From Polytrichum commune (lineage: Eukaryota; Streptophyta; Polytrichopsida; Polytrichales; Polytrichaceae), in NCBI GenBank assembly GCA_950295325.1, contig OX485805.1, positions 41,374,258 to 41,438,257 of the forward strand: 64,000 nt of DNA, read 5' to 3'. Below, piece after piece: positions 7,216 to 52,825 of this stretch. Position 1 is the first letter of the stretch. The number at the start of each line of letters is the position of its first letter. Under the pieces are notes generated by a model. It was not told the origin of the DNA and searched no databases. It saw only the letters and a program-made list of their open reading frames with translations. A program made the translations under genes and the position numbers.

Positions 7216-7362
7216 TAGGTTACTTAAGTACTATAAACTGCAGTTCAAGTATCTGGAAAGCATAACCCATAACATTAGGAGAACTTCCCAAACTCACTTA
7301 CATACTTGAGTTCAGCCTTATCCTGTAATTTTCTTTGTGATCGGAAAGGCTCTACAGCTAAG

Positions 7363-11015: not shown

Positions 11016-11780
11016 ACCCATATTAATTTCTTAAAAATAACTGGACTAGTAATGATAGGTTGGCAACGCATGATGCACCCACTTGCTTTTATATGAGACA
11101 TTTTAAAAAAAAATTTATGTCTAACCCCCTTTGTATTATTGCCTCAAGTATTAGATTAGACTAGGATTATTTAGAACTACTAGAACTTGGTATTTTTGAA
11201 ACCCTTGAGACAAGGAGCCGACTACGTAAGTTAGTGTCTAAAGTGATTCATCTCATCCACAAAGATGAATGAACTCTCACTAAGTTCATGAGTGCCACGA
11301 ATCCCCGGCTTGCCTTTGGATGCAAATACATACATTGTATTTTCGCCATCAATGTCTAGTATGAATATATTTTAATTTTCTCCTTGACATAAGACAATGT
11401 ATAAGATAAGGTTACAAACAAATACATATATAGAATATGATATATGAACTTGGCAAAATTCATATAAATTGTGTACATGGCCGTATATTGAGACCCCAAG
11501 TCCTTTAAGGGCTAAGAGGGGTGAGCTACTTCAAGTTGCTTTCAAATAAATGTCATTACTTCTTGAAGGACATTAAAATCATCCTTTTAAGTAGATATGG
11601 GATTTCGTCAAGAGGTGGTACCCTATGGTTATAGTTGTTGTTGTTGGAAGTATGTAACTTAAAGCAGCAGCTTCGAGTTCATGGGGGTTATCATTTTCCA
11701 TCTTCCAGGCTGAGTCCCTTTGGTTATGGACCCTACCACCCACTGCACGACTGCACACGTAGAATGGCTCATTTCCACTA

Positions 11781-11997
11781 CACCAAATATGATATTTAGT
11801 GTGACTTACTGTTTGGATTTACACGGTGCTATATCTTCTTACTATTGGAATAGTTTTTTACCAAATAAAGTTGTCAATGTTCTATAATGTCCAAACTACC
11901 ATTTTAACACTTGTTGGTAAAATATGAGATGTACAATAGATAAATATAGCATTGCGTAATTCCAAATAGTAAGTGACACTAAATGTCATATTTAGTG
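11781..11997. mobile_element. 217-bp MITE flanked by TA
   Basis: Flanked by TA at 11779-11780 and 11998-11999, with TIRs of about 40 bp. Each end is itself near-palindromic (ACTAAATATG then ATATTTAGT). Related ends occur at 22755, 26545-26760, 34163, 35960 and 50154. A TA duplication fits the Tc1/mariner class; no coding sequence is present. Confidence 0.7.
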
Positions 11998-12001
11998 TAC
12001 T

Positions 12002-13762: not shown

Positions 13763-13888
13763 AATTTTAAGAAAGAATTTAATTACATAAATGCCAGGAT
13801 TGCAAAATATACCAAAGTCAAAGTCGTTGAACCGAAAGTAAGTTGGGATGACGGTACTTGCAAACTTATTCATAAGGAAGATCCTTAG
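13763..13888 (+). pseudogene. Recurrent 41-codon exon-like segment, copy 1
   Basis: Reads NF..EFNYINA..AKYTK, then EPKVSWDDGTCKLIHKE and a stop. Four other copies in this window keep the same frame and length. The source protein is not recognised; probably a relic exon carried by block C. Confidence 0.45.
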
Positions 13889-14468
13889 AAAGGTTACCAC
13901 ACTGACATAAAACACCATACGGCATTAAATACAATATTTAGTGTACTTACAACCCGCCCCTTACCAATATTCCCATCATTGTTGTTCCTTTTGTGGCTGG
14001 CAAGTCCACATAGGTGGTGTTTGAGTGGAGGTTTGTGTTTTGGTTAGTGGGTGTTGGTGTTTGCGGGTGGAGGTTACCACAAAGTGTTATGATGATTGGT
14101 TCTGGTTGCTATGGCTTTCTCTGCGGTAGTATGAGCCCAAAATGGTTGCTCATATTTGTTTTATGCTTAGAATTTACTTAGAATTGCATTTGGAGTGTTA
14201 TTGAAACAATCAAAAGTATAAAAAGAGTGAGGCTTGGTGTGGATTTATGTTTAGGCCTTAAGCCTATTTTGTGTGGTGAAGTAGAAGCTTAGTGACATTA
14301 GGGAGTGTTTTGGTTAAGTGAGTAGTGTTTGATGAAGCAAGGGGAAGGGCCTTGGACTTTAATGTTTGATTTAGAACATGTTCTTGTTGGTTTAGGGGGT
14401 GAGGGTTTAGTGGATAGGATAAGGTCCTACTAAGTAGGAGAAGGTGAAGGGGTTGTGGTCTTGGGTGT

Positions 14469-16689: not shown

Positions 16690-17062
16690 TTTAGAACGAC
16701 GAAGACAAATTCAAATTGTAACTCACAAAAATTATATCCTCAGTGGTACTGAGGGTTTTGTAATATTTTTGACTTCCAAGTCAATTACATGCTTTATTGA
16801 GGGTGTCACTTTGATAATGAAACCCCAAATAATTGCTTATTTACTCAATGGAAGTGAACATATATATATTGGATTTTGAGCCTTGAGAGTGAAGTGCACT
16901 CAATATGGGATTTGTAGTCAAGCAACCTCCAAGGATGCAAGGGCAATGTTTTTTTCAAAGTTGGGCGGGGCGGGCAGTAGAGTTCGGTCGGATTCAAAAA
17001 TATCCCAAGAGGGCTGCCCCCGCCCGGATTTGACACCCCCCAAAGTTCGTAGGGGGGTGTTT
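16690..17062 (+). repeat. R1 repeat family copy
   Basis: Carries GTGCACTCAATATGGG and a GC-rich right end with GGGGGGTGTTTAATGTC. It lies between blocks C and D and is absent from the equivalent junction at 33445-33490. Confidence 0.7.
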
Positions 17063-18176
17063 AATGTCTGCCCGAGACAACCCATACATTGGTTTCTTGG
17101 AGACAAGGGTTTAGGAATCCAACAAGGATCGAGTGTATTGTTGGGTTCGCCCAAATCGTGTGTTAGCCAACCTCTTGTCATGGCCAAAACTTAGGACTAA
17201 TCCTGCTCTCTTTCATCATCTAAGGTAAATGTGCCTAATTCGGTTACTTATCTTAATTGCACACCTTTGTGTGGGTGGTATGTGGTAAGGTGGGACTTTT
17301 CAAAAATGGATACCAAAATAATTAACAAGCGCTTCAAAGAGATTGGACTACGTGTTCTAAATATGATAACCATTTTAAGCTCAGTAGTCAACATAATTTG
17401 TGTGCTTGGGGAGGGGGGGGGGGCTATATGACCATTTAATGCGCACAAGTATGACAACTGCAAGTGACCACTAGAATCTTGTGTAGGCCTTGATTTTGCT
17501 ATGAGATTGAGAAGGGTTGATTGCCAATGCTTTCGTAAATACAAAAAAAACTCCCTATGTCTTTTTGTGAATTTAGATAGGCTCTCTCAATTACCAATTA
17601 TAGTAGTAGGTAGTCAGTTTGTAGTGACAATGAGTGCATAAGAATATGTGCATTTTGAAGTTGAGGTTGATCTAAGTCATCCTTATGTTCAATTGAGGAA
17701 GATATATTGAATGTACCTGGTGCATCATAGGTTTCTAAAATCATTGAGGATGATTAAGAAATTAGTAAAGTGGTAGTTCCTAATGTTTTATTTTCTCAAG
17801 TGCGAGAAGCAATGGCAACCCTATCTACACCTATAGAACAACGTCAATGAACTCAAGACAAAGCTTTTGTCTTTACAAAAATCCATCATTGTTTTATGTA
17901 CTCAAGAGTCTCATCAAACAACAATAGACTCTTATTTTGGTCACTAAGTAAGTGTAAGTTTTCAAAAAAATCAAAAAATAAAATAAAAATGTGAAGACAT
18001 TTAGAAGTGTTACTAATGAATTTATTTTCATCATGTAATTGTTACTCTCATAAGTGTTATTGTTTTTATTTTAAAAATCCATCCTCTATAACTAGTATTG
18101 TATTAGAATTCCATAAGTGTTACAAATTATATACTCGTGAAAGGTAACATTTAGAGAGGCAAGATCTCATCTGTAG

Positions 18177-19497
18177 CTCGGGGGGGGCACTCCCTTGTAT
18201 ATTTTGCATACACCTGCGATAATGACCTATTAAAATGGGGGCTATTTACCTATGAGAAAGGATTATAAGGGATGCTAATTTTTGAAATAATGGTAAATTG
18301 TTGTGATTATTTGCACCCTATTGGTAATTATAAATTCTTGGATGGTTGATTTTATGGTACCCTATATTACTTATATGTAATCTTTTTCCCCTGATTGCCC
18401 CCATTCCTTAAAGTGTATGATACAGTAGAATTCTCGTTAGAAGCACGTGTACAGAGTAAGAGAAACAAACATTTACTAGGGTTTAGGATTCAGGGTCACA
18501 CTGAAGTCCGGGCAAAGCAAAACACTAAACAATAACAACAAAAGATTGTAATTACATGTCATTAAGCAACACGAGCCAACGAATAAAAGTTGTGTTGGAT
18601 AACACAATTAGAAACCTTGAGGTCTTAGGGAACAGGCCAACCACATTTGTCTCAAAGTCACATTTACAAGGTTTGCAGAAGCCCTACAATTGATGCCTTG
18701 ATCTTCCAATCCTACACATTGGAGGAAAATCCCACGCCATGCAAGCAAAATCCACCTAAACTAGCTAGGCTACCATTTACACATGTGGGAGATATGAGGG
18801 TACTCGAACTGAAATGACTACTACAGATTTCAAGGTATACTAATGATCATTCAGCCCTTTTTCCAAATTATATCTCCGCATGTGTGAGATAGTACAAATT
18901 TAGCAGGTTTTATTTTTTATTTGAAATGAACTCACTCAATGAGTTTGCATCTACCTCATCTAAGGTGTAGATTTTGCTAGTTGATTCATACACTAGAGAC
19001 ACAGTTGAGATAATAGCATCCACATCAACCCAAACACAGTCACTCTCAACATACTTATATTTGTTGAGACCTGGCAGTTTTTTGAACCAATGGAGGTAAG
19101 CCATAGCAGTTGGGAAGAGCGTTTCTCTATTTCCGTTCTAGACTGCACGTTTTCATCAAGTCAATGGGTTGCCAACAATTGCCCCACTTAGTACCAACCT
19201 TCACCCTTATCTTTTGAACCCTTCCTATATAGAACATGCCATATTTTGGTGGCAAAGTATTTAATTTTTGAAACTATCGCTTTTTCTCCATGCTATTTTA
19301 TATGTACCACTTAGGTAATTTAATCATGTTTTGTCAAATGCTATATTACATATAATCATGTTTCACAATCCCAGAGCACCCTATACTACATCTAATAATT
19401 TTACAAATTTTACGAGAAATTTTTATACAAGACCCTATATTTTATCGCACGTAGTTCCTACGTTTTTCGCCAGTGCCCCCCCCCCCCCCCCCCCGAG
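18177..19497. mobile_element. 1321-bp hAT-like element with polyG/polyC termini
   Basis: Flanked by the 8-bp TSD ATCTGTAG (18169-18176 and 19498-19505). The inverted block D copy has this site once and uninterrupted (51857-51864). Terminal inverted repeats are CTCGGGGGGGGCACT on the left and its complement on the right, where the C-run has grown to about 19. A minus-strand ORF (19104-18910) resembles one in the related element at 26765-28625. Confidence 0.9.
18910..19104 (-). pseudogene. Transposon-borne ORF remnant
   Basis: Sixty-four codons including W-F, VWVDVDAIIS and YESTSKIYTLDE. The pattern WxxxD..IIx..xxxY...S..Y.L matches the ORF at 28088-28303 in a sister element, at a similar distance from the right terminus (about 590 and 540 bp). 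Probably the last exon of the autonomous parent's protein; family not identified. Confidence 0.45.
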
Positions 19498-21110
19498 ATC
19501 TGTAGATTCTCACTATGTAAGTCAAGCCCAAGGTTTGTGAATCTTGTGTTCAATAAATTAGCCGTAAAAGGCATAGGTTGGCCAATGTTTTATTTGAGGC
19601 GTATGTATGGGGTGCCAACTTTGTATGGCCTACCTCCATCCATGAAGTTAAGTGAAGTGAAGTGAAACGATATTGATTTTAACGTTTAGGGCGTCAAAAA
19701 AGCTAATGTAATTGAAAGTACATCATGATGGTTCCAAACCAATTAATTGTCTATAGTGGGGGAATGCGGTAGCTTCCGTGACATAGAGGCTAATATCAAC
19801 TTGATGATTCAATTGAAAGAAAGACTTGAAACTCCCTAGAACTACACTCTTACACAATGATGAAAATTTATGTCTAATGAGATTATAAAAGAGCATTCCA
19901 TCACAAAATGTGCCATGTTTTCAATTGCATCATATGAAGTATGACCGTCATTCCTGATGGTAGATGCACTTGTCCATCACAATCATTAAGTGTCCATCAA
20001 ATAGAGCATCCCAACTTGGAACATTTGCTATGGGTTGTTGGGGGGGGGGGGTCAAGCAAATCCCAAAATGCGACCCTGAAGTGCATGGTGATACACCATC
20101 CAAGAGCTTACTACCCAACTGTAAATGGCGGCACTTGATACAATATTTGGTATGTCCCTCAAATTTGAACTCTTGGTCTTACCCAAGAAACTAAACATGC
20201 AATTCATCTCGGTACTAGGAATTAGGGAGAGAGGGAATTAATCATCCATCCAGCATAAAAACTTGATCTCTACATAGGTTTGTTGTCAATTCATCTCAAA
20301 TGACTCCCGAGTAGATTATTTTGGGGCCTTTGAAGCTAATTTCAGTGTCAAATCAATTAAACAAATGTAACCTCCATGTTGCAAATTATTTTAGGGCTTT
20401 TATGTTGGATGAATGAGTATACACTTATATACATAATTCCTTCTCTTCGGGAGTTTATGGGTAACTTCTATCATTTGTATCATTTTGTATCATAACATTA
20501 TAGAGCTCAGTATGTACAGTGGTTGGGCAGGAAATAACCCAAATTTTATCGTAATTATACTTGGTTTATTCACACATCATAGCACTGTACTGACAAATTC
20601 ATGCTAAAGACTTGGGTGAGGCAATGTATTGATATTATTAGAATGGAACAATTGATACCGGTTGAATAATGCTATGTGCCACTAGGTGGGGCCATGAATA
20701 AACCAAATTATATATGGAGTTATATTTTATTTATCCTATCAACACAACATATTCAAACTTGACAAACTCACTATATTCGTTAATCGGAGACTTTGAAAAG
20801 TCTCAAAATAAATGCAAATGGTTTAATATTTGGTCCAATTTCTTATTCTGATGACATATATTTGTGCCAAATTGGTTAGTGTCGCCCATGTGAATGAGTT
20901 TATTAAGTCACATTGAATATATATGTTTTTGTTTTTCTTGTTTTTTATTTGAAAACCATGCCCTTAAGTACTCTCAAAATCATTAGAAAGTGTCCAATTA
21001 CCATATATAGTGATTGATGCAATGCCATTATTATATTAGAACAGAATAATTGCTAGCATTTGAATTATATTATGTGATCTTCCTTCCTCAATATATCTAT
21101 ATATTGTGCT

Positions 21111-21317
21111 TGTGATGAGAGGCATCAATATGAGCACATCAAGCGGAGGGCTAGGCTATGTGGGGGGTCCAATGGCACCTTCATACATACACAATAGAAT
21201 TAATCAAAAAATTATGGGGATCAATTGGCATCACATTGTCTTAATGATCTCTTGTTTGAATGTAACTGGAAAATGTTGGAGGGCTTCTTTGAGTTTTAGG
21301 CGCAGACATGTTTTATC
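21111..21317. other. Short non-coding stretch left of polyG element
   Basis: Lies beyond the end of the inverted block D match. Its last eight bases are the left TSD of the following element. No gene seen. Confidence 0.4.
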
Positions 21318-21964
21318 CTCGGGGGGGGGGGGGGGGGAGGAGGGGGGGTCGATGCCTCTTATATTAATGCATACACGTGCGTTGAGGACCTGTTTATCCG
21401 GGGGCTATTTACTTTGTAAAAAAGATCACAAGGTATGGTATTCTTCAAAATAAAGGTAAATGCTTGTAATTTAATACACCCTATAAGTAATTATAATTTA
21501 TTATAGGAATCATTTAAAAATACCTTATTTTACTTATACTGCCAAAGAAAATTGGAAAGAAGATTGTGATTCAAACAATGTGTTGAAATTTTCCCTCCCG
21601 GCACATAGATAGAGAACACTAACTCCACATTGGATGCATTGGTTCAATAAAGTTAAGGCCAGCCAACCTGCGAAGTCATCCATCCAAGCTTCTTCAACAT
21701 AAAATTACCTCTTTTCATCCACTAGCACAAACCCTACCCTAGACCTGCTACCCCTAGGAATTATTTCCACGTTATTTTACATGTACTGACTAGATAAAAG
21801 AGCCCGTTACATGCCATGGTATTTTTCATGTAATCATGTTTCATTATTTAAAAACCCCCTATATTATATGTACGTTTTTGCAAAATTTATCTACAATGAA
21901 TTAATCAGACCTTATTTTTTTATCGCACGTTGTTTCTACGATTTTCACAGGTGACCTCCCCAAG
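21318..21964. mobile_element. 647-bp hAT-like MITE with polyG terminus
   Basis: TSD GTTTTATC at 21310-21317 and 21965-21972. The left end CTCGGG continues into a run of about 17 G; the right end is degraded (CAGGTGACCTCCCCAAG). Internal landmarks shared with 18177-19497 include CATACACGTGCG, GGGGGCTATTTAC and, near the right end, ATCGCACGT. No ORF of note. Confidence 0.82.
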
Positions 21965-21972
21965 GTTTTATC

Positions 21973-23576
21973 TTTGTATGTCTAAGAATATTCTCATTAT
22001 CTTTGCCATCTATGTGCACATGCATCTCTTTGCTCCTCTCACCACTTGTGTACTCCTTACATAGAATCAAACTTACGAAAGAACTCAACTTTTGTCAAAG
22101 TTTTTTGCCCCAAAGTAAAGAAAATTGACCTCCTTCCCTGATTTTGTTTTTAGCTTACTAACCCAAGTGTTGGAGTGGCAAATATGGAGACTCCATCAAG
22201 AAACTTGACTCGCTCCCCACTTTTGGTGAATGTTCAATTAACTCTTATGCACATGGAAAGCCCAGTGCTTGGTACATATGAAGCAGTTGAAGTTCAATAC
22301 CGCAATGAAATTAGAGGAATTAAGAGAATAACCTCAAATCAATCAAAAGAATACCCATAAAAATATCAACATGTAACCGGTTGGACTTGGAAACACTAGG
22401 ATCTTGACCAGTTATGCCCAAAAATCTCCTCAAATACTAGAGTTATCCATAAAGTCCCTCGAAGAGGTATGAAACCGTGCGTTTGGTCTCGTGCGTAAAG
22501 CTGTGATTTGGGCTCGGCATCATTAGGTGCCCCTTCTTAAGTGCTCCAGAATGTTCCGGGCCTAGGGAGATGTGTCCCTTATTAAAGTTACATAATATGT
22601 GTGAAGTCATGGGGCCAAAATCTGAGAGAGGGAATTATCGGAGACGAGCATACCCATCATTCATCCAACATAAGAACCTTGAAATACTATGCAGCATGGA
22701 GGTTACTTGTTTTAGTTGGTTTGAAACCGGAATCAACTTTAAAGACCCAAAATGCACTAAATATAATATTTAGTTTCACTTACTATTTGGAATTGCGCAA
22801 GGCTATATCTATTTATTGTATATCTCATATTTAGTAACTTTGTGAATGGTATGGCTTATTGTGTGGACTTGAGGTTCCAAGATACTACTCAAGAAAGTCA
22901 TATTCACTATTTGCCACCTGAAGAGATGATGGGTTGTGTGAACGTGTTTGTTATTGTTGCGTAAGTATGTGCTCTTACTTGTTTACTGTAATAAATTTGG
23001 TGCATTATTATAATTACTATTACAATGAAAGCCAATATATTGGATGTTTGAAATATGTTGGGAAACTATAATTTCTTTCTTTCTTCTCTTAAGTGTTAAT
23101 CTCATTGTTTAAAATTAATTGTTTATTGAGCCAATCATCATGTATCCGCTTACAGAGAACCTAATCATTTTGCGACAACCAATTTCAAACCCCAATGCTT
23201 GAATGACACATGCCCCCCCTCACAGTATTTGAATTCCCACAACCAAAGAGAAGAAAAAGATTATTGTTAGTGACACTAATGAGCTTGTTTAGTATAGACT
23301 CGGAGGTTGGAAGCTTGAAGAATTGGAGCCTCCATGTCAACATGGGAATCTTACTCGTGCTCACTTGCTCAAGTCCACTCCACCACTTGAGTTTTCAACT
23401 CATAAGCTTCACCTTTTTATGGGGCCTTACAATGCTTAGATGGTGCCTTGATGGATCCCATGGGAAACGTCTATGACAAGCACTTGGTCGAAATTTCAAG
23501 CTACCTCGTGGAGGTCACTTGGGAGGAGTATTGAGAGTTCAAGGTATTGTTTTGTGGGTAATGGGTAATGAGTAGT
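21973..23576. other. Unassigned DNA with a dispersed repeat
   Basis: 22610-22990 belongs to a dispersed family also at 35930-36370 and, partly, 20215, 38890 and 50945 (landmark TCATCCAACATAA). It contains one half of the TA-flanked MITE near 22755. The 88-codon ORF at 23210-23476 shows no domain. Confidence 0.4.
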
Positions 23577-24213
23577 GTGTGTGGAAAGCACTTACAATAA
23601 GCTAAGTGTCCACTTTTGTGGACCATTAGGGAGGAGTTACACTGACTATTGTATTGAGTGTTATGGATTCTTTTTTTCTTGCTCAATACTAATTATAAAC
23701 TACCCGTGTAGTGCATGTCACCAATACAAAATGTAAACCTAACATTATTTGTCATTCCTTGTAAAAACATTTGGGGATATAGATCTACGATGTTGCAATT
23801 ATTGTCAGTGACTAAGTGATTTGCATCCAAATTTTAAGAAAGAATTTCATTACATAAATGCCAGGATTGCAAAATATACCAAACTCAAAGTCGATGAACC
23901 AAAAGTAAGTTGGGATGACGGTACTTGCGAACTTATTCATAAGGAACATCTTTAGAAAGGTAACCACACTGACATAAAATACCATACGACATTAAATACA
24001 ATATTTAATGTACTTACAACCCGCCCCTTACCAATATTTCCATCATCGTTTTTCTTTTGTGGGGCCTTACAATGCTTAGATGGTGCCTTGATGGATCCCA
24101 TGGGAAACGTCTATGACAAGCACTTGGTCGAAATTTCAAGCGACCTCGTGGAGGTCTCTTGGGAGAAGTATTGAGAGTTCAAGGTGTTGTTTTGTGGGTA
24201 GTGGGTAATGAGT
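23420..24213 (+). repeat. Block C partial copy between 153-bp direct repeats
   Basis: 23420-23576 and 24061-24213 are near-identical (start GGGGCCTTACAATGCTTAG). Between them, 23577-24060 matches 13355-14010 and 29990-30625 of block C. This is either a partial tandem duplication or an insertion that duplicated its flank. Confidence 0.7.
23830..23955 (+). pseudogene. Recurrent 41-codon exon-like segment, copy 3
   Basis: Same frame, length and stop as at 13763, reading EPKVSWDDGTCELIHKE. It lies inside the partial block C copy. Confidence 0.45.
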
Positions 24214-25034
24214 CCCAAGGTAATGGGCTTTCCCTTTTTTGGGGGTTCGTTATATTTTTCCTTTGTCATCCCATTCGGCTCTCAACTTAATCTCTAGGGT
24301 AAAGGAAACTTGAGCCACCCATGACACGAGGCAACATCATACATGTGAAAGATGGGGAAAGGACCCTTCATTCATACTTGCTCATGTGGAGGCCAATGTT
24401 CACATTTCTCTTAGGTAAGTAGGCCTTGTGTGGTCATGCTTTTAAATTGGACACCCAATCTAAATGGTGAATGGCAAGGCTTATAGTTAAGAACGGACAC
24501 AAAAAGAGAGATATATTACAACGAGATTTGACATGTGGAAATCGGTTATGGTATTTAATGTCATTGGCAAAGTGTCACTTATTTAATCATGAGGCTTATG
24601 CTTAGGTGACATGAATCCTCATTAGTGCAAACACGTGACACTTGACAGCAATAGCTCAATAAATTTCTTCATTTTGCATACAAAAAACATAAAATTTTCA
24701 TTTCAAGTACCTTAATGTGCTACGCTACAAATTATACTCTAAATAACAATAAGAATACTTTGAGTAACTACTTACATTGACATATCGTTGTCCATAATAT
24801 TCATTCAGTTGCTATCAACCGTTCCATTCTAATAACATCAACCACATGACTTCACCCAAATTTACCAGGCCAAATCTGCCAGTGTTATGCTCTCCTGGGA
24901 GAATAAACAAAATAGAACTCCAAATAGAATTTGGCTCATTCCCGCGCCACCAATGTACAACCGCACTTGGATAATGTGATGCCCTCCACTTCCGCATCTA
25001 CGCCGCTCCCGTCTCATAGTCTCTCGTAATTTTA
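24214..25034. other. Unassigned DNA
   Basis: 24811-24960 is distantly related, inverted, to 20515-20650 in block D. No gene is supported. Confidence 0.35.
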
Positions 25035-25425
25035 AAGACCAAAAGGCGAATGGTTTTGTTAAAGAACTCATTGCGGCTGCCCCCCACCCATCCTTCCCAA
25101 TGAAAGTGAGGCCATTCACATCTTTCTCCATGAATCAAGTTCCCAAAGTCTGGTAAAATCAAAACATAAGCTCACATTACAGCTAATTCATAGTTTGGTA
25201 AATCAAAGTATATTCGGTTCCCAAAGTCTGGTAAATCAAATCTCAAATTATAGCTAATTTGAAGTTTGGCAGGCACGGACGTTGCCCATGTGGCAGCCAC
25301 ATGGCGAAATGCTGACTCATCCCTTTAGCCACTTGCCACACGTGCCCTTGAATCAAACTCAATAACCAATTCAGTCGCATACGTTAATTGCACTGCAATC
25401 AACAATGATTAGACTGGAGGTCCTG
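25035..25425 (+). repeat. Repeat E, copy 1
   Basis: Near-identical to 36728-37050 (landmarks CTCATTGCGGCTGCCCCCC and CCACATGGCGAA). Copy 1 has an extra internal duplication around GTTCCCAAAGTCTGGTAAA. No coding sequence. Confidence 0.75.
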
Positions 25426-25744
25426 TTCTCCCTCTTTAGTATGACACGTTTGGGAAACACAAAAAGTCGTATTATCGCGGTGTCGTCTTCTCATTAATAT
25501 GACAAATGGCGTAAGGTTGTCGTATTATCAAGAAAATGCGAAAATATAAGTAATATGAACTTAAAATTGTATACAACGAGTTTAAACAATATAGATGGTA
25601 TGAAGTAATAACTTCTAACTCCAAACAAATACAAATATTCTCAAGAACTCTTGAAATAGGAATCCAAAGATACCACCGCAATGCGTCGAACACAACTCCA
25701 TTGTTTAATTTCATGTCTTTTTTATAGCAACTACGGGAGTTGAC

Positions 25745-26405
25745 ACTTATTGGAATTAATCATGATTTGAATGGAATTAACTCCTATAAATATAATTTAT
25801 GATTAATTAGGCTTAATTAATTTGGTAAGCATATTTTCTGATTTAATTGGGCTTAATTAGGATTAATCATAATATATTAGACTTAGTTGCATTCAATCTT
25901 ACTTAACTAGTTTAAATGCATATGAAAACTTTGTGATAGTAGAAGGTATTAAGATATATTATATATTAAGATATTATTTTTTCTAATAAATTTTAGTTTC
26001 ATTTTAGAATGACAAAGTCTCTTTCAATTGTAAGTGACAAAAATCATAACCTCAGTGCTAATGAGGATTTTGTAATATTTTTGACATCCAAGTTAGTTAC
26101 ATGCTTTATTGACGGTTTCACTTTGAAAATGAAATCTAGTCAATAGCTTATCGTGTAGCTTATTTACTCAATGGAAGTGAACATATATATTGGATTTGAG
26201 ACCTTGAAAATGAAGTGCACTCAATATGGGATTTGTGGATAAGTAGCCTTCAAAAATGAAAGTACAATAATTTCTTCGAAGTCAGGCGGGCGTGCAGCAA
26301 TTTTCGGTCGAGTGCAGAAAAGTTGACGGGCGGCTGCCCCTGACATAATATTCCCCCACCAGCCCCCCCCCCTAAAAGTTCGTGGGGGAGTATTTAATGT
26401 CCCCC
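25745..26405 (+). mobile_element. 661-bp insertion ending in an R1 repeat
   Basis: Block B at 50000-50030 shows the uninterrupted sequence, so the insertion is delimited. It is bordered by GAC at 25742-25744 and 26406-26408, a possible 3-bp TSD. The right 400 bp are R1, ending in TTTAATGTCCCCC. The ends do not form an obvious inverted repeat, so the class is open. It contains a C-run near 26363. Confidence 0.7.
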
Positions 26406-26544
26406 GACTGGAAGTATGTAACTTAAAGCAGCAGCTTTGAGTTCATGGGGGTTATCATTTTCCATCTTCTAGGCTGAGTCCCTTTGGTTATCGACCCTAC
26501 CACCCACTACACAACTGCACATGTAGAATGGCTCATTTCCACTC

Positions 26545-26760
26545 CACCAAATATGATGTTTAGTGTGACTTATGGTTTAGATTTACACGGTGCTATATCT
26601 TTTCCCTATTGGAATTTTTTTTACCAAGTAAAGTTGTCAATATTCTATAATGTCCAAACTACCAATTTAACATTTGTTGGTAAAATATGAGTTGTACAAT
26701 AGATAGATATAACATTGCGTAGTTTCAAATAGTAAGTGACACTAAATATCATATTAAGTG
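26545..26760. mobile_element. TA-flanked MITE, block C copy 2
   Basis: Paralogue of 11781-11997. Its right terminus was the target of the next insertion, whose TSD AGTGTACT covers the MITE end and its flanking TA. Confidence 0.65.
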
Positions 26761-26780
26761 TACTCTCGGGGGTGCACCTT

Positions 26781-27856
26781 TGTCACCAAAAAGCCTCCAC
26801 CCTTCAATTTCGTCCTAGTCCGAATGGAGAAGTTTATAATGATATGTAGAGATTTCTCTCTTTGTAACACAATGTATGATTCCAATCTATCGTTGGAATA
26901 TACGCAACTTAGCCAAGTCTATACTATGTCTTCTTACACTCCTTAATCTCGAAGTTTGAAAGTTTGAAAGTTTGGACATAGTCTCGGTTTTTTGGCTCTC
27001 AAAAATTCATATGAAGTCCAAAAAATGAGTACTTGGTATCCATGGATAGGTAATAAAGTCTTCTACATGAATATGCAATAATATTTCTACTGCCACAAAG
27101 TATATGGTCGCAATTCTACGCTGTTCCCTTTGAACCTACACTTTTTCACTAGTTTTTGGAAGTTTGGACATAGTCTCGGTTTTTTGGCTCTCAAAAATTC
27201 ATATGAAGTCCAACAAAACTAAACGCTCCAATAAGAGACTTTGCACATCCGCATAAGTATAAGGCTAATCAATGTAAATCCAAGTATTCAAACAAAGCCA
27301 TAAATTGAACTTTAAATCATTCACGCCCAACTATTACTAACAAGAGGTCAAGCCCTCTTCAAGGCCAACTAGCCTTGGCTCCTAACCTTACATCCATGCA
27401 CACACACGTGCTCCTATCTTGCTTCCCACGCACCCACACTTATAACACGTAGAGTGCCAAGGAGCACGAAGGAAAGAGAGGATGAGTGAGGGAAGAATGA
27501 GGGATTATATAGTGAGTTTGAGGGGGTGAGCACCCTCAAGGCTCACGATAAGCCCTCGAGATTTCCTCCTACTTTGTAGGCTCTTATCTTATCTCCTAAG
27601 CCTTCCTCCCTCAAATGATCAACAAGGATCCTAATTCAAACATTCAACTAACCTTGGCTTTCTACCTACCACACTTTACCAAAGTTTGTCCTTCTCCTAC
27701 TTAAATACACTCCACAAAAGCCTAATGATTCAAACTAAGCTTTCTTCAAGCTTGACTCTTTTTATATTTTTGTGAATAATCATAAATCACCAAAACACCA
27801 CTTGTAATGTTTTACAAGTGTTAACAACCAATGTGGGCATCAATTTTGGGCTCACA
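26781..27856 (-). mobile_element. Solo LTR, 1076 bp, family L, nested
   Basis: TSD ACCTT at 26776-26780 and 27857-27861. On the minus strand it begins TGTGAGCCCAAAAT and ends GGTGACA, matching the LTR at 14130-15188 at both ends. Internally it holds a repeated segment of about 65 bp (26960-27027 and 27160-27220, landmark GGACATAGTCTCGG). No internal retrotransposon genes remain. Confidence 0.8.
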
Positions 27857-28087
27857 ACCTTTCATTAAAACCTAGAATCACGTGCGTTCACTGCATACTC
27901 TAAAAAACCCTTATATACAAGTTATTTTTTGTGAAATGAAGTGATACACATACAATTGCAACAATAAATATACAAGTGACAATATGTTTATACAAAAAAA
28001 CATCCATTCATATATAGTCATTAACATAAGTATACAAATATACTTTTGAACAATAATCAACCCCTATAATATGTATAACAAAATATC

Positions 28088-28303
28088 CTAGCTTTCATCA
28101 GCAAAGTCGTTGAAAACTTTTTCATCTCCCGGATGTAACTCATAAACATTTGATTCACCAATATATGTCATTGTAGCCAATGCAATTATTGTCTCTAAGT
28201 CTACCATCAAATGATCAGTAAGATCATATGTCCACTTATTGTTAGCCCCTTTTTGATACCAACATAAACCAATCTCCTTGTTACTTTGAGCTGAACAAAT
28301 CAT
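28088..28303 (-). pseudogene. Transposon-borne ORF remnant
   Basis: Seventy-one codons with CWYQKG, LMVDLETIIALATMTYIGE and YELHPGDE, alignable to 18910-19104. Position near the right terminus is the same in both elements. Function unknown; likely part of the parent element's protein. Confidence 0.45.
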
Positions 28304-30394
28304 TTCAAAACCCTAATACTGCCTCTTTCCCCAATATTACCTTGACACCTTGTACATGGTTCACACTACCCTATAAGGTTGCTAACGAAAATCGTTAATC
28401 CTACTTAATCCTTCATCCAATATGAAAACTTATGATATGTAGTATAGTAACAGTACCATACAAGTACAATTATTGTATACTTTTTAAAGGCCTTCCATAT
28501 ATGTACGTAACTATAAATTATAACATGTATACCATATGTATACGTAATAGGGCAAGGTCCAAATCAATACCCCTCCTGTGCACTCACACATACTCGTACA
28601 TGTTTAGTACAGTGCACCCCCCGAGAGTGTACTAACTTCTTGCAGCTGCATCAGCTAGTAACAACGTTGTGGTTGGTTTCCTAAGACTTACCAAGGGGTA
28701 TTGAAGAGTTAAAATTAATATCTTATAAGTTGCTTGTTGATTCATCCCAATTTGAGTTTATTAGACTAACTTTGGGTATGTACTTTTGATTTATATTTTA
28801 TTGTAGCCAAAATGACAATTACCTGGGCTCTATAACAATAATCAACATTTTCACTCGGCCCTTGCTGAGTTTGTCCTACCCCTCGGTAGATTTTGTGAAC
28901 ATTCACCCAATGTTGGGTCGGGGCTATGTACTTGCATTGTTTATGGTAAAATTGGTGGGCACACTTTTGGGGTGACTTACTGTTCATTGTATTGTATTGT
29001 GGCTCATTAGTAAACATCGTCACTCGTTGACATAACGTGGAACTTTATATTTGAGTGAATGTTTTATATTTTGTGCATCAATTTCTCCACATTCTTGTCT
29101 TACACATGAGATTTCAATGGAGTCTATGTGATTTCGTAGCATATCCAACTTTATGGATTTTTCTATTTTTCATTTTTACCAATAAGATTCAACGAAGAGA
29201 ATTCCTAACAATGGCGATTTCCAACTTTGTTGATGTCTTAAAAAAACATCTTGAATTTTAGATTCAACGTTGCCCATGTAGGACAATTTTGAATTGGATA
29301 TAACTTTGTTGAGAATCTTTCACAAGCACAACATTTTTCATTCATCATAATTAATGTAACTTAGAACACAAACCTCCAATGTTACATATTGTGGGTTGGA
29401 ATATCCAAAGAAAGTATCCATGATGTTTTTAAACTCAGTTTCCTCATTTATAGTATAACCCACATTTCTTACAAGAAACAATGTACATGTCTTGATCGGA
29501 TTTCGTTTCCCATCACCTCCTAGGGGTTACATTGGGAGGCAGTGCACATGAGGGATTCATAGGCTTGTTGTTGATTCATCCAAATTCAATATTGACTAAA
29601 TCGGGATTTTTTTTTTACCCTTATTTGGGTTTGAAATTGGCTAAAACTAGAAATACGTGCTCTCTACATAACAATCAACATTTTCACCCTCTCACTTGGT
29701 AGGTGCTACGAAACGTCACCCTCCCCCACAAACGTCTTGTGGTAGTTCACAATTAAACAAATTGGGTCGTTAATCTTAAACATTAGATTAGGGCCATGGC
29801 TAGATTTTATGTCTATTTCCCTTTGAGTCCCCCCCCCCTTGAATTTGTGATTGGTTTATCTCACTTGAGTTTCACTACATTGATTGTGGGCCACATTATC
29901 AACAAAGTATTCAATAAAAACAATTGAGGATGTATTATGACACATTAGATATGAACATTGTAGGTCACGATATTTATATTGGGTTGAAGTAGTGTGTGTG
30001 GGGAGCATTTACAACAACTCCTTTTAAGCTATTGTATCCATGGAAAGAGCATTTCAAAGATAAACTTTGGTTTTGGTCTAGGAACAAGTTAGTTGTGTCT
30101 CATAAATGACTTGAGTAGGTGGATGAATCGATCATTGTCACAACGTTTATGACATGAATATGAAGCTAAAGTGTCCACTTTTGTGGACCATTAGGGAGGA
30201 GCTACACGGACTATCGTATTGAGTGTTAGGGGTTCTTTTTGTCTTGCTCAGTTTTAATTGTAAACTGCCCGTGTAGTGCATGTCGCCAATACTAAATGTA
30301 AACCTAACATTATTTGTCATTCCTTGTAAATTTTTTGGGGGATATAGACCTACGATGTTGCAATTATTGTCACTGACTAAGTGATTTCCATCCA

Positions 30395-30520
30395 AATTTT
30401 AAGAAAGCATTTAATTACATAAATGCCAAGATTGCAGAATATACCAAACTCAAAGTCGATGAACCGAAAGTAAGTTGGGATGATGGTACTTGCAAACTTA
30501 TTCATAAAGAACATCCTTAG
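30395..30520 (+). pseudogene. Recurrent 41-codon exon-like segment, copy 4
   Basis: Block C copy 2 counterpart of 13763-13888, with the same frame and stop, reading EPKVSWDDGTCKLIHKE. Confidence 0.45.
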
Positions 30521-31069
30521 AAAGGTTACCACACGGACATAAATTACCATACGACACTAAATACAATATTTAGTGTACTTACAACCCGCCCCTTACCAAT
30601 ATTCCCATCATTGTTGTTCCTTTTGTGGCTGGCAAGTCCACATGGGTGGTGTTTGGGTAGAGGGTTGTGTTTTGGCTAGTGGGTGTTGGTGTTTGCGGGT
30701 GGGGGTCACCACAAAGTGTTATGGTGATTGGTTCTTGTTTGCTATGGCTTTCTTTGCAGTAGGCAAGGGTCTTCTTCATGTATGTTGGTTTGTATGCGGT
30801 GTTGTTCGGTTGGTATGGGGTGGCCTAAAACCAAAACCACTTAAAATTTAATATAGCATTTGCGATTCAAAATATGCATCAAGCATTCAATATCAACACA
30901 CATTGTCCTCATATATCTTTAAAAAGACCAAAACCCACAAAAAAAAAGTTCTTGTCCATCAACAATCAAACAACACCACACGTTTGACCTTCTGCTCTTG
31001 ATAAGGCCAAAAATCAAAAAAAAAGAAGCTCGTGGGCCTCAAAAATATGTTGCAAACCAATATTCTCCA

Positions 31070-31195: not shown

Positions 31196-31781
31196 AAAGG
31201 TAATGACACTTAATACAATATTTAGTGTACTTCGTGTGAGAGGGTCACCCAATAAGTGACAAGTTGTCATTTATGGTAAGGTTGAAATTTGGAAAACAAT
31301 GATTGACTGCCACTCGTGCACTAGATTAGGAGTAGAATGATTCTTGTGTGGACCCAAACTGACTAATGGTAAAATAAGTGATCCAGAAAGGATGCATTGA
31401 TTGGTCGGATACGTCCTATTTCACGCCACTTGGGATCACTTTTGAGTGCCATTAAGTTATTTGTTTTATGAGCATTCCTATACAGAGTAGGATATTATAA
31501 TGTTGAAATTAAGGAGACTCTATTATACAACTAGGGAGTTCGACTTACTTGCAATGTTGTGAAACTGCAATTAATTATGTACAAGGAATAAAACTATGAA
31601 ACAACTTGCCAATTCCTCATCATTTCCTCACCTCCGTCTCTGCAAGAAGATTGCACAAATCTTAGCTTCTTCTCACCGTCAATTGTATTTCTACCTTGAG
31701 ATTCACTTTCAGTCTGGAGCATTCTAGATTACAGGCAAGCGTGGAGTGCTGCATGGCGTACCTTAAATTTGGTGCACCATA

Positions 31782-33895: not shown

Positions 33896-35364
33896 ACGTA
33901 TTCGATATTCACATATATGATGAGCTTCAAAAATCATAGAGGAAGTGGCTACAACATCTATTTTAGTTTGCTAACCATCTCATCCTAACCGCGTGTTTCA
34001 TATCTTAAAAGAAGTGGAGTAGTGGGGGAAAAAACACATTATCATTTATGACCCATCTTCCTTACCCAGACAAATCTACTAGACTCATCAAGTGGAACTT
34101 GAAAGAAATGTTCCAATTTGGCTCGGGAAGAGAGGATGATCCCCACATCGTTACACTAAATATTGTATTTAGTGTCACTTACTATTTGGAGTTATAGTAA
34201 TCACACTTGAACCGGAGTTGGTTCAAATGAACCGGAGCCGTTGGTGCAAACTTAGTTGGTAGGTGTGTACTTTACTCAAATTGCTTTCTAGACCCTTTGA
34301 TTTGATGAATTGCAATGGGAAATGGATGAAACTTGAGGCAACTTGCTTGACCGATGTGCAACGATGTGAAATCATTGTAAAGTTGAGCAAGCCGAACATG
34401 CCAAGCAACCATGCACTGGGGTGGGAGTATGAAGTTGGTGAAGGCACCATCCGGAAAGCCTGGGACAATTAGGAGAACATATTGCAAAGAAATCCAACCT
34501 AAAGAAGATCCCCACATCATTACACCTACTGGGAGATGAGGAATGAGGGTGCAAAAACATGCCCTCTATAGGTTATGGATAATTCAACCCAATTTAAATT
34601 CACTTTTCTAATTTGAAGACAAACCTAGCTCGGTGAAAACAAACCTAGATGAGTCACTTTAGACTAGTAGGCTATCGTTGGAGGCAAGTAAAACATTAAT
34701 GAATTGGGAAGATGGTAAGCCATGTAGCAAGCCACTTAGGATTAGTATGCTTGATGTGATTAAATATCATTTTGGCCACATAAGTGAGAAAAAACCGGAG
34801 GTAGAAGGGAATAAGAGTCAAGAACCAATTTCTTGGACTACTCTTAAAACTTCCCCGTATCTAGATAATAGTAGGTAGATCCTAGGATATAATCTCCCAC
34901 ACGATGGATGTAAAAGGAGATTGAGGAGATATGTTCTCTTTTTGAGGATTTCTAGAAGAGCATTACTCATCTACTTGGAAGAAATAAAAGTTATAGACAT
35001 CTAGGCGAGTGGTACATGTGAGGCACCACCTCCCACTATAGAGAGTTAGGATTAGTGTTAGCATACCTTTGTTCACGATAATAGGCTACGTAAGAGCTAG
35101 GTCCTTTGTATCTCTACCATTATGCATACAAGACTTTCAAGCTCAAACTTTCTCCTTACTTATTTGAGGTAGGCGCAAAGTAATTGATAACATAGACATC
35201 ATCAAGTTGATGAGTGCTATGAATAGAAACTCACATGATCCATTTATAGCTGAGATGATAATACAATTATTGTGAATGTGCTAAAAGTATATTATATCAC
35301 ATATATTTGCGATTTCCAAAACACTAAATGTCAATAATATGAGAGGGAATTTGCCCCTTCCGAG
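33896..35364. other. Unassigned DNA
   Basis: One MITE end near 34163 (ACTAAATATTGTATTTAGTG). Short ORFs at 34223-34560 overlap on both strands and show no domain. Nothing else recognised. Confidence 0.4.
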
Positions 35365-35717
35365 CTCGGGGGGGGGGGGGGGGGTAGTCATTGGTTGGAG
35401 TAGCAATATACGTGCGAACAAATGATAGGGTATTTTAAAAACATGGGGGCAAAAAATTATAAATGAACTTAAGAGTAATATAGGGTATCAAAAATGGCAC
35501 TGGATTTCTTTAAAGTACTATAGGGTATGGAATAATAGGTAATTTGGAATTATAAGTAACGCAAGCCATTTTTCTTTTAACCCAAAGTAGAAAATAACAT
35601 AATGATAGCATGTGAAAAAAAGAAGAGAATTGAAAGTAATACCCCCCCTATAAAATAGTGGTTGTTCGCACCTATATCCTTAACTTTTTAACACACTGCC
35701 CCCCCCCCCCCCCCGAG
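35365..35717. mobile_element. 353-bp MITE with polyG and polyC ends
   Basis: Begins CTCGGGG with about 18 G and ends with about 16 C followed by GAG, giving the same inverted termini as 18177-19497. Internal landmarks ATACGTGCG and ATAGGGTAT are shared with that family. I could not find a convincing 8-bp TSD, so the insertion may be old or the flank altered. Confidence 0.65.
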
Positions 35718-48330: not shown

Positions 48331-49954
48331 AGGATCCTTACACTCGATTCATAGTTTTTTTGTTTCAAATCAAGATTATATTTTGATTCTTCAAAACATT
48401 AGGTTTTCTAAAATATTGCGTAACCCAAAATTGAGGTGACATTTTAGAATAAAATGGATGTCAATTGACATTCGTTTTTGTTTTTGAAAACGTCACGTCA
48501 CACTTTGGATTTGAAGTTGAACGTCAAATAAAATTTGTCGAACAAACACATTGTTTGGAACTATCGATTTCATATACTTTTTTTGTTTTCCAACACATTT
48601 AAGAATTCATTGTTTGGAAGTCATATGGATAGGTTACAAGGGATTAAACTTCTATTTGTACATGACCTAAATTAAAACCAACACCCAAATCACATGTTCA
48701 AGTAGTGTACATTCTCATAATGGATATATACCTATTGCACAAGATTTCTAGGTGTTGATTTCGTGTCAATGTTGGTGATGAATGTACATACATTCGATTT
48801 TAGACTACACTGATTATCCTGATTTGTGTGTGTTACCACAGAAAGTTACGCAGTGCAATAATGTTATACTTGGGAGTTTGGTTTTCACTAACGAAAGTTC
48901 AATTGGTTGTTTGGACATGACAAGACATAAATGGCTTTCCTTGGTAAAATGTTACATTCTCATTGAATAGTTGTAGCACTCCATAACTCCGAATAGTGCG
49001 ATGCACTAATTGGGATAATCAATGTACATAATTGGGGAGTGGAGAGTGGAAGACGTAGGAGTTTAGGCCTGTGGTAGAGACTATTGGTCGAAGAAGAGCC
49101 TCCACAAGGCACAACCACGTGTTGGGCCCCTACCAAAGGTACAACTACTTTCTTTCTAAAAAATTTCAATTGTGGCAAGCAAGAGTAATCCATGTATGCA
49201 AATGTATGTTTAGGAATGTCTGAATTGATAGCAAGTGGACTACTTAGACGAGGTTGCTTGATTTAAGTGCATGATGTGCGTATATGTAGAATTTTCTTTT
49301 GTGGTAGAGAAAATAAGGGTTGGTTAACCCCTAAGCGTCTAAGAGACGCACATTAAGCCTTCTGCAAGGAAAAAATAGCATATATGAGCTATGTACTTTC
49401 ATGTTTAGTTAATCACGTCAAAAGTGGTCTTCTTTTAAATTAATTTATTTGTGTGAATGCCCTATTTGAATAAGTTGAACATTTGGATGTAATTCAACAT
49501 TCAAGTTCATTATGTAGAGTAATGCCTTTGGATGCAAATACGTAATTGTATTTTCGCCATCAATGTCTAGTATGAGTATATTGTCATTTTCTCCTTGACA
49601 TAAGACAATGTATATGATGAGGTTACAAACACATACATATATAGAATATGATATATGAACTTGACAAAATCCATATAAATTGTGTACATGGCCGTATATT
49701 GAGACCCCACGTTTTTTAAGGGTTAAGAGGGGTGAGCTACTTCAAGTTGCTTTCAAATAAATGTCATTACTTCTTGAAGGATATTAAAAGTCATCCTCTT
49801 AACTAGATATGGGATTTCGTCGGGAGGTGGTACCCTATGGTTTTGCACTAGTTGTATTGTATAGAGAACCAACAACACCTTTATGTCGACTTGTGGTGTG
49901 CGCTTGATTGGAGGTGGTGTTTGAAATTGAATGAAGGGCAACGTATTTGTTCAA
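48331..49954. other. Non-coding part of block B
   Basis: Aligns to 7955-11645 of block A minus its two transposons; the empty target sites are at 49393-49400 and 49523-49531. No gene seen. Confidence 0.6.
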
Positions 49955-50254: not shown

Positions 50255-52825
50255 TGTAAAGTTAAATATATATATGTCTCAATATATAGATATATTGAGG
50301 AAGGAAGATCACATAATATCATTCAAATGCTAGCAATTATTCTGTTCTAATATAATAATGGCATTGCATCAATCATTATGTACGGTAATTGGAGACTTTT
50401 TAATGGTTTTGAGAGTACTTAAGGGCATGGTTTTCAAATAAAAAAAAGAAAAAGAAAAAATATATATATTCAATGTGACTTAATAAACGGATTCACATGG
50501 GCGACACTAACCAATTTGGCACAAATATATGTCATCAGAATAAGAAATTGGACCAAATATTAAATCATTTGCATTTATTTTGAGACTTTCCAAAGTCTCC
50601 GATTAACGAATATAGTGAGTTTGTCAAGTTTGAATATGTTGTGTTGAGAGGATAAATAAAATATAACTCCATATATAATTTGGTTTATTCCCGGCCCCAC
50701 CTAGTGGCACATAGCATTAGTCAACCGATATCAATTGTTCCATTCTAACAATATCAATACATTGCCTCACCCAAGTCTTTAGCATGAATTTATCAGTACA
50801 GTGCTATGTTGTGTGAATAAACCAAGTATAATTACGATAAAATTTGGCTTATTTCCTGCCCAACCACTGTACATACTGAGCTCTATAATGTTATGATACA
50901 AAATGATACAAATGATACAAATCATCCGTAAACTCCCGAAGAGAAGGAATTATGTATATAAGTGTATACTCATTCATCCAACATAAAAGCCCTAAAATAA
51001 TTTGCAACATGGAGAGTACATTTGTTTAATTAATTTGACACTGAAATTAGCTTCAAAGGCCCCAAAATAATCTACTTGGGAGTCATTTGAGATGAATCGA
51101 CAACAAACCTATGTAGAGATCAAGTTTTTATGGATGGGAGATACTACACTCGTATACGATTAATTCCCTCTCTCCCTAATTCCTAGTACCGAGATGAATT
51201 GCATGTTTACTTTTTTGAGTAAGACCAAGAGTTCAAATTTGGGGGACATGCCAAATATTGTGTCAAGTGCCGCCACTCACAATTGGTAGCAAGCTCTTGG
51301 ATGGTGTATCACCATGCGATTCATAGTCACATTGCTAGCAAATGTTCACAAGTTGGGATGCTCTATTTGATGGACACTTAATGATTGTGAGGGACAAGTG
51401 CATCTACCATCGGGAATGACGCTCATACTTCATATGATGCAGTTGAAAACATGGCACATTTTGTGTTGGAATGCTCTTTTATAATCTCATTAGACATAAA
51501 TTTTCATCATTATGTAAGACTGTAGTTCTAGGGAGTTTCAAGTCTTTCTTTCAATTGAATCATCAAGTTGACATTAGCCTCTATCTCACGGAAGCTACCG
51601 TACTCCGCCACTCTAGAGAATTAGTTGGTTTGGAACCATCATGATGTACTTTCAGTTTCATTAGCTTTTTTGACGCCCTGCACTTTCAAATCAATATCGT
51701 TTCACTTCACTTCACTTCATGGATGGAGGTAGGCCATACAAAGTTGGCACCCCATACATACGCCTCAAATAAAACATTGGCCAACCTATGCCTTTTACAG
51801 CTAATTTATTGAACACAAGATTCACAAACCTTGGGCTTGACTTACATAGTGAGAATCTACAGATGCAATCTTGCCTTTCTAAATGTTACCTTTCAGGAGT
51901 ATATAATTTGTAACACTTATGGAATTCTAATACAATATTAGTTATAGAGGATGGATTTAAAAAAAAAAACAATAACACTTATGAGAGTAACAATTACATG
52001 ATGAAAATAAATTCATTAGTAACACTTCTAAATGTCTTCACATTTTTTTATTTTTTTTATTTTTTTTGAAAACTTACACTTACTTAGTGACCAAAATAAG
52101 AGTCTATTGTTGTTTGATGAGACTCTTGAGTACATAAAACAATGATGGATTTTTGTAAAGACAAAAGCTTTGTCCTGAGTTCATTGACATTGCTCTATTG
52201 TTGTTCTATAGGTGTAGATAGGGTTGCCATTGCTTCTCGCACTTGAGAAAATGAAACATTAGGAACTACCACTTTACTAATTTCTTAATCATCCTCAATG
52301 ATTTTAGATACCTATGATGCACCAAGTACATTCAATATATCTTCCTCAATTGAACATAAGGATGACTTAGATCAACCTCAACTTCAAAATGCACATATTC
52401 TTATGCACTCATTGTCACTACAAACTTACTACCTACTACTATAATTGGTAATTGAGAGAGCCTATCTAAATTCACAAAAAGACATAGGGAGTTTTTTTTG
52501 TATTTACGAAAGCATTGGCACTCAACCCTTCTCAATCTCATAGCAAAATCAAGGCCTGCACAAGATTCTAGTGGTAACTTGCAGTTGTCATACTTGTGGG
52601 CATTAAATGGTCATATAGCCCCCCCCCCACGTACGCACACAAATTATGTTGACTACTAAGCTTAAAATGGTTATCATATTTAGAACACGTAGTCCAATCT
52701 CTTTAAAGTGCTTGTGAATTATTTTGGTATCCGTTTTTGGAAAGTCACACCTTACCACATACCACCCACACAAAGGTGTGCGATTAAGATAAGTAACCGA
52801 ATTAGGAACATCTACCTTAGATTAA
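50255..52825 (-). repeat. Block D, inverted copy
   Basis: Reverse complement of 17220-21110 lacking the polyG transposon, whose empty site is at 51857-51864. Junctions: left in the truncated MITE of block B, right in the third Roco fragment. Contains a C-run near 52619. Confidence 0.85.

What the first reader, a model, noticed from the sequence alone, without database searches (positions are those of the whole stretch)
18177..28625. A hAT-like family whose terminal inverted repeats contain expandable polyG/polyC runs
Four elements (18177-19497, 21318-21964, 26765-28625, 35365-35717) share termini CTCGG(G)n followed in two by GCAC. Three have perfect 8-bp TSDs (ATCTGTAG, GTTTTATC, AGTGTACT). 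The G-run length varies from 5 to about 19, and the two ends of one copy differ (8 and about 19). Terminal repeats are normally recognised by transposase as fixed sequence; a homopolymer there would change spacing between copies. I know of no described family with this end. Two copies share a minus-strand ORF remnant that could identify the parent.
Basis: partly seen in the sequence, partly recalled or inferred. Interest (0 to 1): 0.82.

Follow-up and report, generated by a model that had tools for sequence, protein, structure and literature searches.

The report
Jumping genes with growing G-tract ends
These are cut-and-paste jumping genes of a plant-like genome whose ends are most often found with a run of eight G's that seems to lengthen by copying slips after they land; they come from a large transposase gene that the protein-family library does not recognise.

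Summary
Elements at 18177-19497, 21318-21964 and 26765-28625 have perfect 8-bp target duplications; 35365-35717 has none. I add a fifth at 9003-9412. Duplicated DNA inside the window supplies empty sites, each with a single 8-bp target, for three of the five. In 42 sources, perfect flank matches (lengths 5-12 tested) at 116 end pairs occur only at 8 bp (19 pairs).

The parent was found. The ORF remnants in two elements are the C-terminus of a ~1,500-residue transposase; 9 of 58 genome matches are stop-free frames of that size. One ends in the same terminus as the 35365 element, with 8 Gs instead of 16. Pfam has no model for it, and no end fits the hAT rule as I recall it. "hAT-like" is not supported beyond the 8-bp duplication.

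The G tract is variable but explicable. In the 18177-type subfamily both ends have a mode of 8, little below it and a tail to 22-23; the two ends of a copy are uncorrelated (63 copies). Tracts outside these ends also differ between duplicates. Best explanation: an 8-G tract is delivered and lengthens by slippage afterwards. Structure prediction, other species and one control census were not obtained.

The parts
18177..19497 (-). Element E1 (subfamily B), 1321 bp; ends CTC-G8-CACTCCCTT and CTC-G19-CACTGGCG; TSD ATCTGTAG at 18169-18176 and 19498-19505
   Evidence: empty site; sister copy in L026 is 98.1% identical between the tracts (1215 of 1239 aligned bases, 50 gap columns) with tracts 20/7
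18910..19137 (-). 75-aa remnant of the transposase C-terminus inside E1
   Evidence: 39% over 74 aa to the L038 protein, E 2e-20; 41% over 71 aa to the L037 protein, E 3e-20
21318..21964 (+). Element E2, 647 bp; left end CTC-G17-AGGAGGGGGGG, right end CTTGGGGAGGTCACC; TSD GTTTTATC
   Evidence: parts near its ends are 71-73% like E1
26765..28625 (-). Element E3 (subfamily A), 1861 bp; ends CTC-G5-TGCAC and CTC-G6-TGCAC; TSD AGTGTACT
   Evidence: empty site
28088..28312 (-). 74-aa remnant of the transposase C-terminus inside E3
   Evidence: 98% over 65 aa to the 796-aa frame of L036
35365..35717 (+). Element E4 (subfamily C), 353 bp, ends CTC-G17-TAGTCATTGG and CTC-G16-CAGTGTG; no TSD
   Evidence: bases 177-342 of E4 are 82.5% identical to the 3' end of the transposase copy L037/L039
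9003..9412 (+). Element E5 (subfamily D), 410 bp, ends CACGGGGAGGTCACT / CACGGGTAGATCACT, no long G run; TSD GTACTTTC
51857..51864 (-). Empty site of E1 in a duplicated stretch: single ATCTGTAG
11994..12001 (+). Empty site of E3 in a duplicated stretch: single AGTGTACT
49393..49400 (+). Empty site of E5 in a duplicated stretch: single GTACTTTC
19445..19452 (-). Subterminal ACGTGCGA of the E1 right end (others at 9370-9377 -, 21923-21930 -, 35410-35417 +)
   Evidence: 4 of the 6 exact copies in the window lie near element ends; positions

Best explanation
The elements are non-autonomous deletion derivatives of a cut-and-paste DNA transposon group that makes 8-bp target duplications (shown). The group encodes a ~1,500-residue transposase with two zinc-finger-like motifs near the N-terminus and a putative D-D-E core: D of AEDET, D of SDGD(S/A)RRR, E of GSDxCExFFS (motif reading, inferred). 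The terminus is C-N-N-G(3 or more) then a CAC-like box, followed by an ACGTG motif 23-29 bp past the G tract in 29 of 47 ends (shown). In subfamilies B and C the stretch has become a pure tract of about 8 Gs (inferred from ends with interruptions). In subfamily A it is held at 5-6 Gs by a T. The transposase most likely cuts and inserts ends with about 8 Gs (inferred from the mode). After insertion, replication slippage in the pure tract lengthens each end independently, with an upward bias and little shortening below 7-8 (inferred from the distribution and the lack of left-right correlation).
For: 8-bp TSD: 19 of 116 end pairs, no other length 5-12. Empty sites with a single target for 3 of the 5 window elements. 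Parent: remnants match the C-terminus of a large protein. Nine of 58 rows are stop-free frames of 1,493-1,549 codons. Copy L037, open over 1,506 codons, ends 3' in CTC-G8-CAGTGTGTTA...GGTGCGAACAACC, the same terminus as E4 (82.5% over 166 bp). Tract: B right ends 149 genome-wide and B left ends 185, reversed-pattern control 0 for both. Of the 100 listed for each, 30 and 37 are exactly 8 and only 3 and 2 are shorter; tails reach 22 (one 31) and 23. Sixty-three paired copies give Spearman 0.009, p 0.94. E1 and its 98.1% identical sister in L026 have 8/19 and 20/7. Interrupted tracts stay short: of 78 right ends shown in letters, 6 of 8 with a non-G letter are 8 or shorter against 17 of 70 pure ones (hand count; Fisher p 0.007). 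C left ends: 1,018 genome-wide; of 100 listed, 24 are <=8 and the rest spread to 19. G/C tracts outside these ends also differ between duplicates: 15 vs 10; 11, 12, 10; 15 vs 5; 8 vs 6 (7 of 9 such tracts had a duplicate, 2 had none). In one search (L001-L036 and the window, 349,732 bases) 43 of 58 G/C runs of 8 or more are not at TIR-like ends. T-interrupted subfamily A: 17 of 17 ends in hand have 5 or 6 Gs (see the selection noted under evidence against).
Against: Right ends of subfamily B are longer than left ends (mean 12.5 vs 10.2 in 63 copies, Wilcoxon p 0.0008); plain slippage does not predict that. Subfamily C has a second, larger mode at 12-14 (41 of 100), which could mean that long ends are themselves mobilised; C ends were not paired. 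The subfamily A comparison is biased: loci were chosen by a pattern that fits G5-N-GCAC, so one end was picked for being G5 or a pure 7-G tract. Two of 8 interrupted B tracts are still long (10 and 20). Of 35 fetched loci only 14 gave a perfect 8-bp pair; for the other 21 I did not find out why. No complete element with an open transposase frame and both ends was obtained. The sequencing method of the assembly is unknown. The D-D-E reading has no structural test.
Confidence: 0.72

Rival explanations
1. Long tracts are part of the mobile unit: the transposase tolerates variable spacing, and long-tract copies breed long-tract daughters.
For: Three C copies (95-96.5% identical between tracts) have 13-17 at all six ends, two of them with perfect TSDs; the C left-end distribution has a second mode at 12-14.
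Against: Sharp mode at 8 in both B ends and no left-right correlation in 63 copies; a transposase-bearing C relative has G8.
Confidence: 0.17
2. The tract variation is mostly an assembly or base-calling artefact of long G homopolymers.
For: The sequencing method is unknown; poly-G is hard for sequencing platforms (general knowledge).
Against: Tracts of 8 and 20, or 19 and 7, at the same end of 98% identical copies; a lower mode at exactly 8 is resolved; tracts outside these ends also differ between duplicates, though that too could be miscalled.
Confidence: 0.1
3. It is a divergent hAT family.
For: 8-bp TSD, short TIRs and zinc-finger-like motifs fit hAT in general; PMC10741241 (passages seen) gives 8-bp TSD and 5-27 bp TIR for plant hAT.
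Against: No Pfam hAT model matches three homologues at E<=1; no PDB sequence by profile at E<=10; 0 of 47 ends fit YARNG (rule recalled). Pfam also gave no match above its cut-offs for ten other ORFs of the window, some transposon-like, so its silence is moderate evidence.
Confidence: 0.15

Closest known systems
hAT superfamily
   Same: 8-bp TSD, short TIR, many short non-autonomous derivatives, subterminal motifs
   Different: Transposase of ~1,500 aa unmatched by Pfam hAT models; ends CNNGG rather than the recalled YARNG
Zisupton / KDZ (Pfam PF18758)
   Same: Zisupton makes 8-bp TSDs (PMC12730594, passages seen) and related proteins reach about 1,400 aa (PMC9297572, passages seen)
   Different: No PF18758 match; the open frames here run uninterrupted over about 1,500 codons, whereas the Zisupton genes of PMC9297572 are described as multi-exonic
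P superfamily
   Same: 8-bp TSD and an E-x-FF-S-like motif near the putative third catalytic residue (both recalled, from no call)
   Different: No Pfam match and no PDB match by sequence
Mononucleotide microsatellites seeded by transposons (recalled, e.g. poly-A tails of retroposons)
   Same: An element delivers a pure tract that then changes length
   Different: Here the tract is G and lies within the terminal inverted repeat itself, at both ends

Membership tests
hAT superfamily | 8-bp target site duplication | tested here: met
   19 of 116 end pairs at 8 bp, none at 5-7 or 9-12; three empty sites
hAT superfamily | hAT transposase (Pfam hAT models) | tested here: not met
   No Pfam family at E<=1 for the L037 and L038 proteins; only AT-hook (E 0.18) and Sushi (E 0.41) in the three L036 pieces
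hAT superfamily | Terminal bases YARNG (recalled rule) | tested here: not met
   0 of 47 ends; the term was not found in the paper library
Zisupton / KDZ | KDZ transposase domain PF18758 | tested here: not met
   no match
Zisupton / KDZ | 8-bp TSD | tested here: met
   Zisupton value from PMC12730594 passages
P superfamily | P-type transposase domains | tested here: not met
   no Pfam match; no PDB sequence match
hAT, P and other DDE groups | Fold of the catalytic core and insertion domain | not testable with these tools
Cut-and-paste TIR transposon in general | Inverted ends, fixed-length TSD, single-target empty site, linked transposase | tested here: met
   the link to the transposase is through the shared 3' terminus of L037/L039 and the remnants; no copy was obtained with both ends and an open frame

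The most novel reading that the evidence does not exclude
An undescribed superfamily of DNA transposons with a ~1,500-residue transposase and CNNGGG ends, in which copies start from a near-identical tract of about 8 Gs and so form hundreds of datable, replicated trials of how a mononucleotide tract grows in a plant genome.
Probability: 0.33. Interest if true: 0.6.

Novelty: new variant of a known kind. Interest (0 to 1): 0.47.

Why it matters
If right, more than a thousand end tracts (149 + 185 + 1,018 ends counted) are repeated trials from about the same start length, so the direction and threshold of G-tract growth could be measured against insertion age. The lower edge at 7-8 suggests the length the transposase needs. 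The transposase itself is unmatched in Pfam and sits in a genome with intact-looking frames.

Tried and rejected
hAT, KDZ and P assignment by Pfam and PDB sequence: no match. Relatives in viral contigs and prokaryote genomes: none confirmed. Empty sites for E2 and E4 within the window: only one flank of each has a duplicate, none across the joint. L018's 4,484-bp copy looked full-length but holds C-terminal remnants at both ends with other sequence between. Rows dropped before end counts: L014:8130-9350 and L020:9079-9434, each with a perfect 8-bp flank but unlike ends. The constant G5/G6 pairing in subfamily A was considered and rejected as a signal, because the search pattern favoured it. 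Papers (listings only unless said): no peptide motif, no paper with CTCGGG, TSD, transposase and 'terminal inverted', three papers for the tract terms, none of them on this by title, no Polytrichum genome paper, moss genome listing not followed. A census of subfamily A ends and of C right ends (asked once) did not complete.
Full report
OBSERVATION. TSDs ATCTGTAG, GTTTTATC and AGTGTACT are exact; the element at 35365-35717 has no TSD. A scan for 8-bp repeats next to inverted ends added 9003-9412 (TSD GTACTTTC, ends CACGGGGAGGTCACT/CACGGGTAGATCACT). The window holds large internal duplications. Three of the five insertions fall in one copy of a duplicated stretch only. The other copy has the target once: 51857-51864 for 18177-19497, 11994-12001 for 26765-28625 and 49393-49400 for 9003-9412. 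This shows insertion with 8-bp duplication directly.

GENOME. The window lies in a 408-Mb assembly of 64 contigs. CTCGGGGGNGCAC has 58 matches against 10 for the reversed pattern. I obtained DNA around 35 of the 58 matches, besides the window's own; 14 of the 35 loci gave at least one pair with a perfect 8-bp flank. I did not find out why the other 21 gave none; eight of the 35 reach only 1.5 kb to each side. Over all 42 sources (363,127 bases), 116 pairs of C[TA][CT]GGGG ends 80-9000 bp apart were tested for perfect flank repeats of 5 to 12 bases: 19 at 8, none at any other length. A looser end definition gave 24 rows; I dropped two with unlike ends. With three further ends (two of the 35365 element and one of L039) this makes 47 ends. 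ACGTG is found in 30 of the 47, 29 times 23-29 bases past the tract and once 37 (the interrupted left end of 21318-21964); it is absent or altered in 17. Ends without a long tract, such as CACGGGGAGGTCAC, CTTGGGGAGGTCAC and CTAGGGTAGGGCAC, suggest that the pure tract arose where the interrupting bases became G (inference).

PARENT. The remnant in 26765-28625 has 150 scored relatives in the genome (2,226 candidates at first look). One lies at the C-terminus of a 796-codon open frame (L036), preceded in the same frame by two more open stretches (392 and 260 codons) separated by single stops; its 3' end is CTC-G6-TGCAC. Searching with the 796 residues gave 58 rows, nine of them stop-free frames of 1,493 to 1,549 codons. 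Two such copies were fetched: L037 (1,506 codons) and L038 (1,502 codons). L037 is 49% and the L036 piece 41% identical to L038. The remnant in 18177-19497 matches the last ~75 residues of L038 and L037 at 39% and 41% (E 2e-20 and 3e-20). The 3' end of L037 is CTC-G8-CAGTGTGTTAGAAATTTAAGGATATAGGTGCGAACAACC, and 166 bp of the 35365 element match it at 82.5%. So the 353-bp elements look like derivatives of that kind of copy. Neither copy was obtained with both ends; for L038 no end was found in the stretches fetched. The N-terminal part of the L037 frame may come from another repeat (its letters resemble window 57531 on; not tested further).

CLASS. No Pfam family matches the L037 and L038 proteins at E<=1, and the three L036 pieces give only AT-hook (E 0.18) and Sushi (E 0.41). 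A profile of the three finds no PDB sequence at E<=10. Two zinc-finger-like motifs (residues 204-245 and 318-349 of L038) and the candidates AEDET (705), SDGDSRRR (825) and GSDSCE (1063) are read from sequence; the D, D and E of the last three are invariant in the three proteins. 'D-D-E' is my inference. Pfam also gave no match above its cut-offs for ten other ORFs of this window, so its silence is moderate evidence. The ends do not fit YARNG (0 of 47; rule recalled). Zisupton also has 8-bp TSDs (PMC12730594, passages seen), but its domain PF18758 does not match. I therefore place the group as a DDE-type TIR transposon of unassigned superfamily.

THE G TRACT. For subfamily B (the 18177 type) the right end has 149 and the left end 185 matches in the genome, with 0 for the reversed controls. 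For the 100 listed of each, lengths from coordinates give a mode of 8 (30 and 37 of 100), only 3 and 2 below 8, and tails to 22 (one 31) and 23. One left end is listed twice with different starts; it and the 31 stayed in the counts. Letters were shown for 78 right ends and one left end. Eight of the 78 carry a non-G letter in the tract; six of those eight are 8 or shorter, against 17 of the 70 pure ones (hand count; Fisher p 0.007). Sixty-three copies could be paired from the two partial lists (contigs 1 to 4), giving Spearman 0.009, p 0.94. The right end is longer on average (12.5 vs 10.2, p 0.0008), which I cannot explain. The 18177 element and its sister in L026 are 98.1% identical between the tracts, yet have 8/19 and 20/7. 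For subfamily C, 1,018 left ends were counted with 0 for the reversed control; 100 listed, all on contig 1, range over 6-19 with 24 at 8 or less and a larger second mode at 12-14 (41 of 100).

CONTROLS. Nine G/C tracts of 8 or more in the window lie outside these elements. Seven of them have a duplicate in the window, and all four sets differ in length: 15 vs 10; 11, 12 and 10; 15 vs 5; 8 vs 6; two have no duplicate. The window has 14 such runs against 0.75 expected from a first-order model. In L001-L036 and the window (349,732 bases), 43 of 58 such runs are not at TIR-like ends. Growth of G tracts is therefore a general habit of this genome, not of these ends alone. Subfamily A, with a T after 5 or 6 Gs, shows 5 or 6 at 17 of 17 ends in hand, but these loci were mostly chosen by a pattern that favours G5; the unbiased census did not complete.

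VERDICT. The ends of this group are most likely delivered with a short, mostly 8-G tract that then lengthens by slippage; 'expandable' is right, 'recognised at variable length' is not shown. The new parts are the transposase group itself and the scale of the replicated tracts. Whether the group is already named in a repeat library outside these tools is unknown; the searches made for it in print were made, of which I saw listings, with passages of PMC12730594, PMC9297572 and PMC10741241.

Noticed in passing
window 16-9002 vs 39364-49400; 11645-14129 vs 26409-30762; 17218-21106 vs 50280-52822: Large internal duplications at 88-95% identity; one pair carries ROCO-like genes (COR-A E 1.5e-7 and Roc E 6e-4, both below Pfam's cut-offs).
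   Followed up: partly
window 54343-63100, minus strand: Several open frames that look to me like MULE/SWIM-type transposase genes (label recalled); none of the 10 window ORFs scanned, these six among them, reached a Pfam cut-off.
   Followed up: no
window 30553-30580, 31205-31232, 34152-34179, 26738-26765, 35958-35985: A ~25-bp near-palindrome (GACACTAAATACAATATTTAGTGTA) recurs; element 26765-28625 inserted at the edge of one copy.
   Followed up: no
window 6887-7160, 10641-10923, 16714-16977, 26002-26290, 39170-39441, 47308-47571: A dispersed ~260-bp repeat in both orientations, about 74-82% identical between copies.
   Followed up: no
G000 contigs C1-C7: About seven large contigs seem to hold nearly all of 408 Mb; with the gene content I guess a moss with n=7 such as a Polytrichaceae (recall only, no test).
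   Followed up: no
L006:1501-2316: A copy with subfamily B ends but a different-looking interior (816 bp); 14 of 63 paired copies round to 800 bp, suggesting an internal replacement that spread.
   Followed up: no
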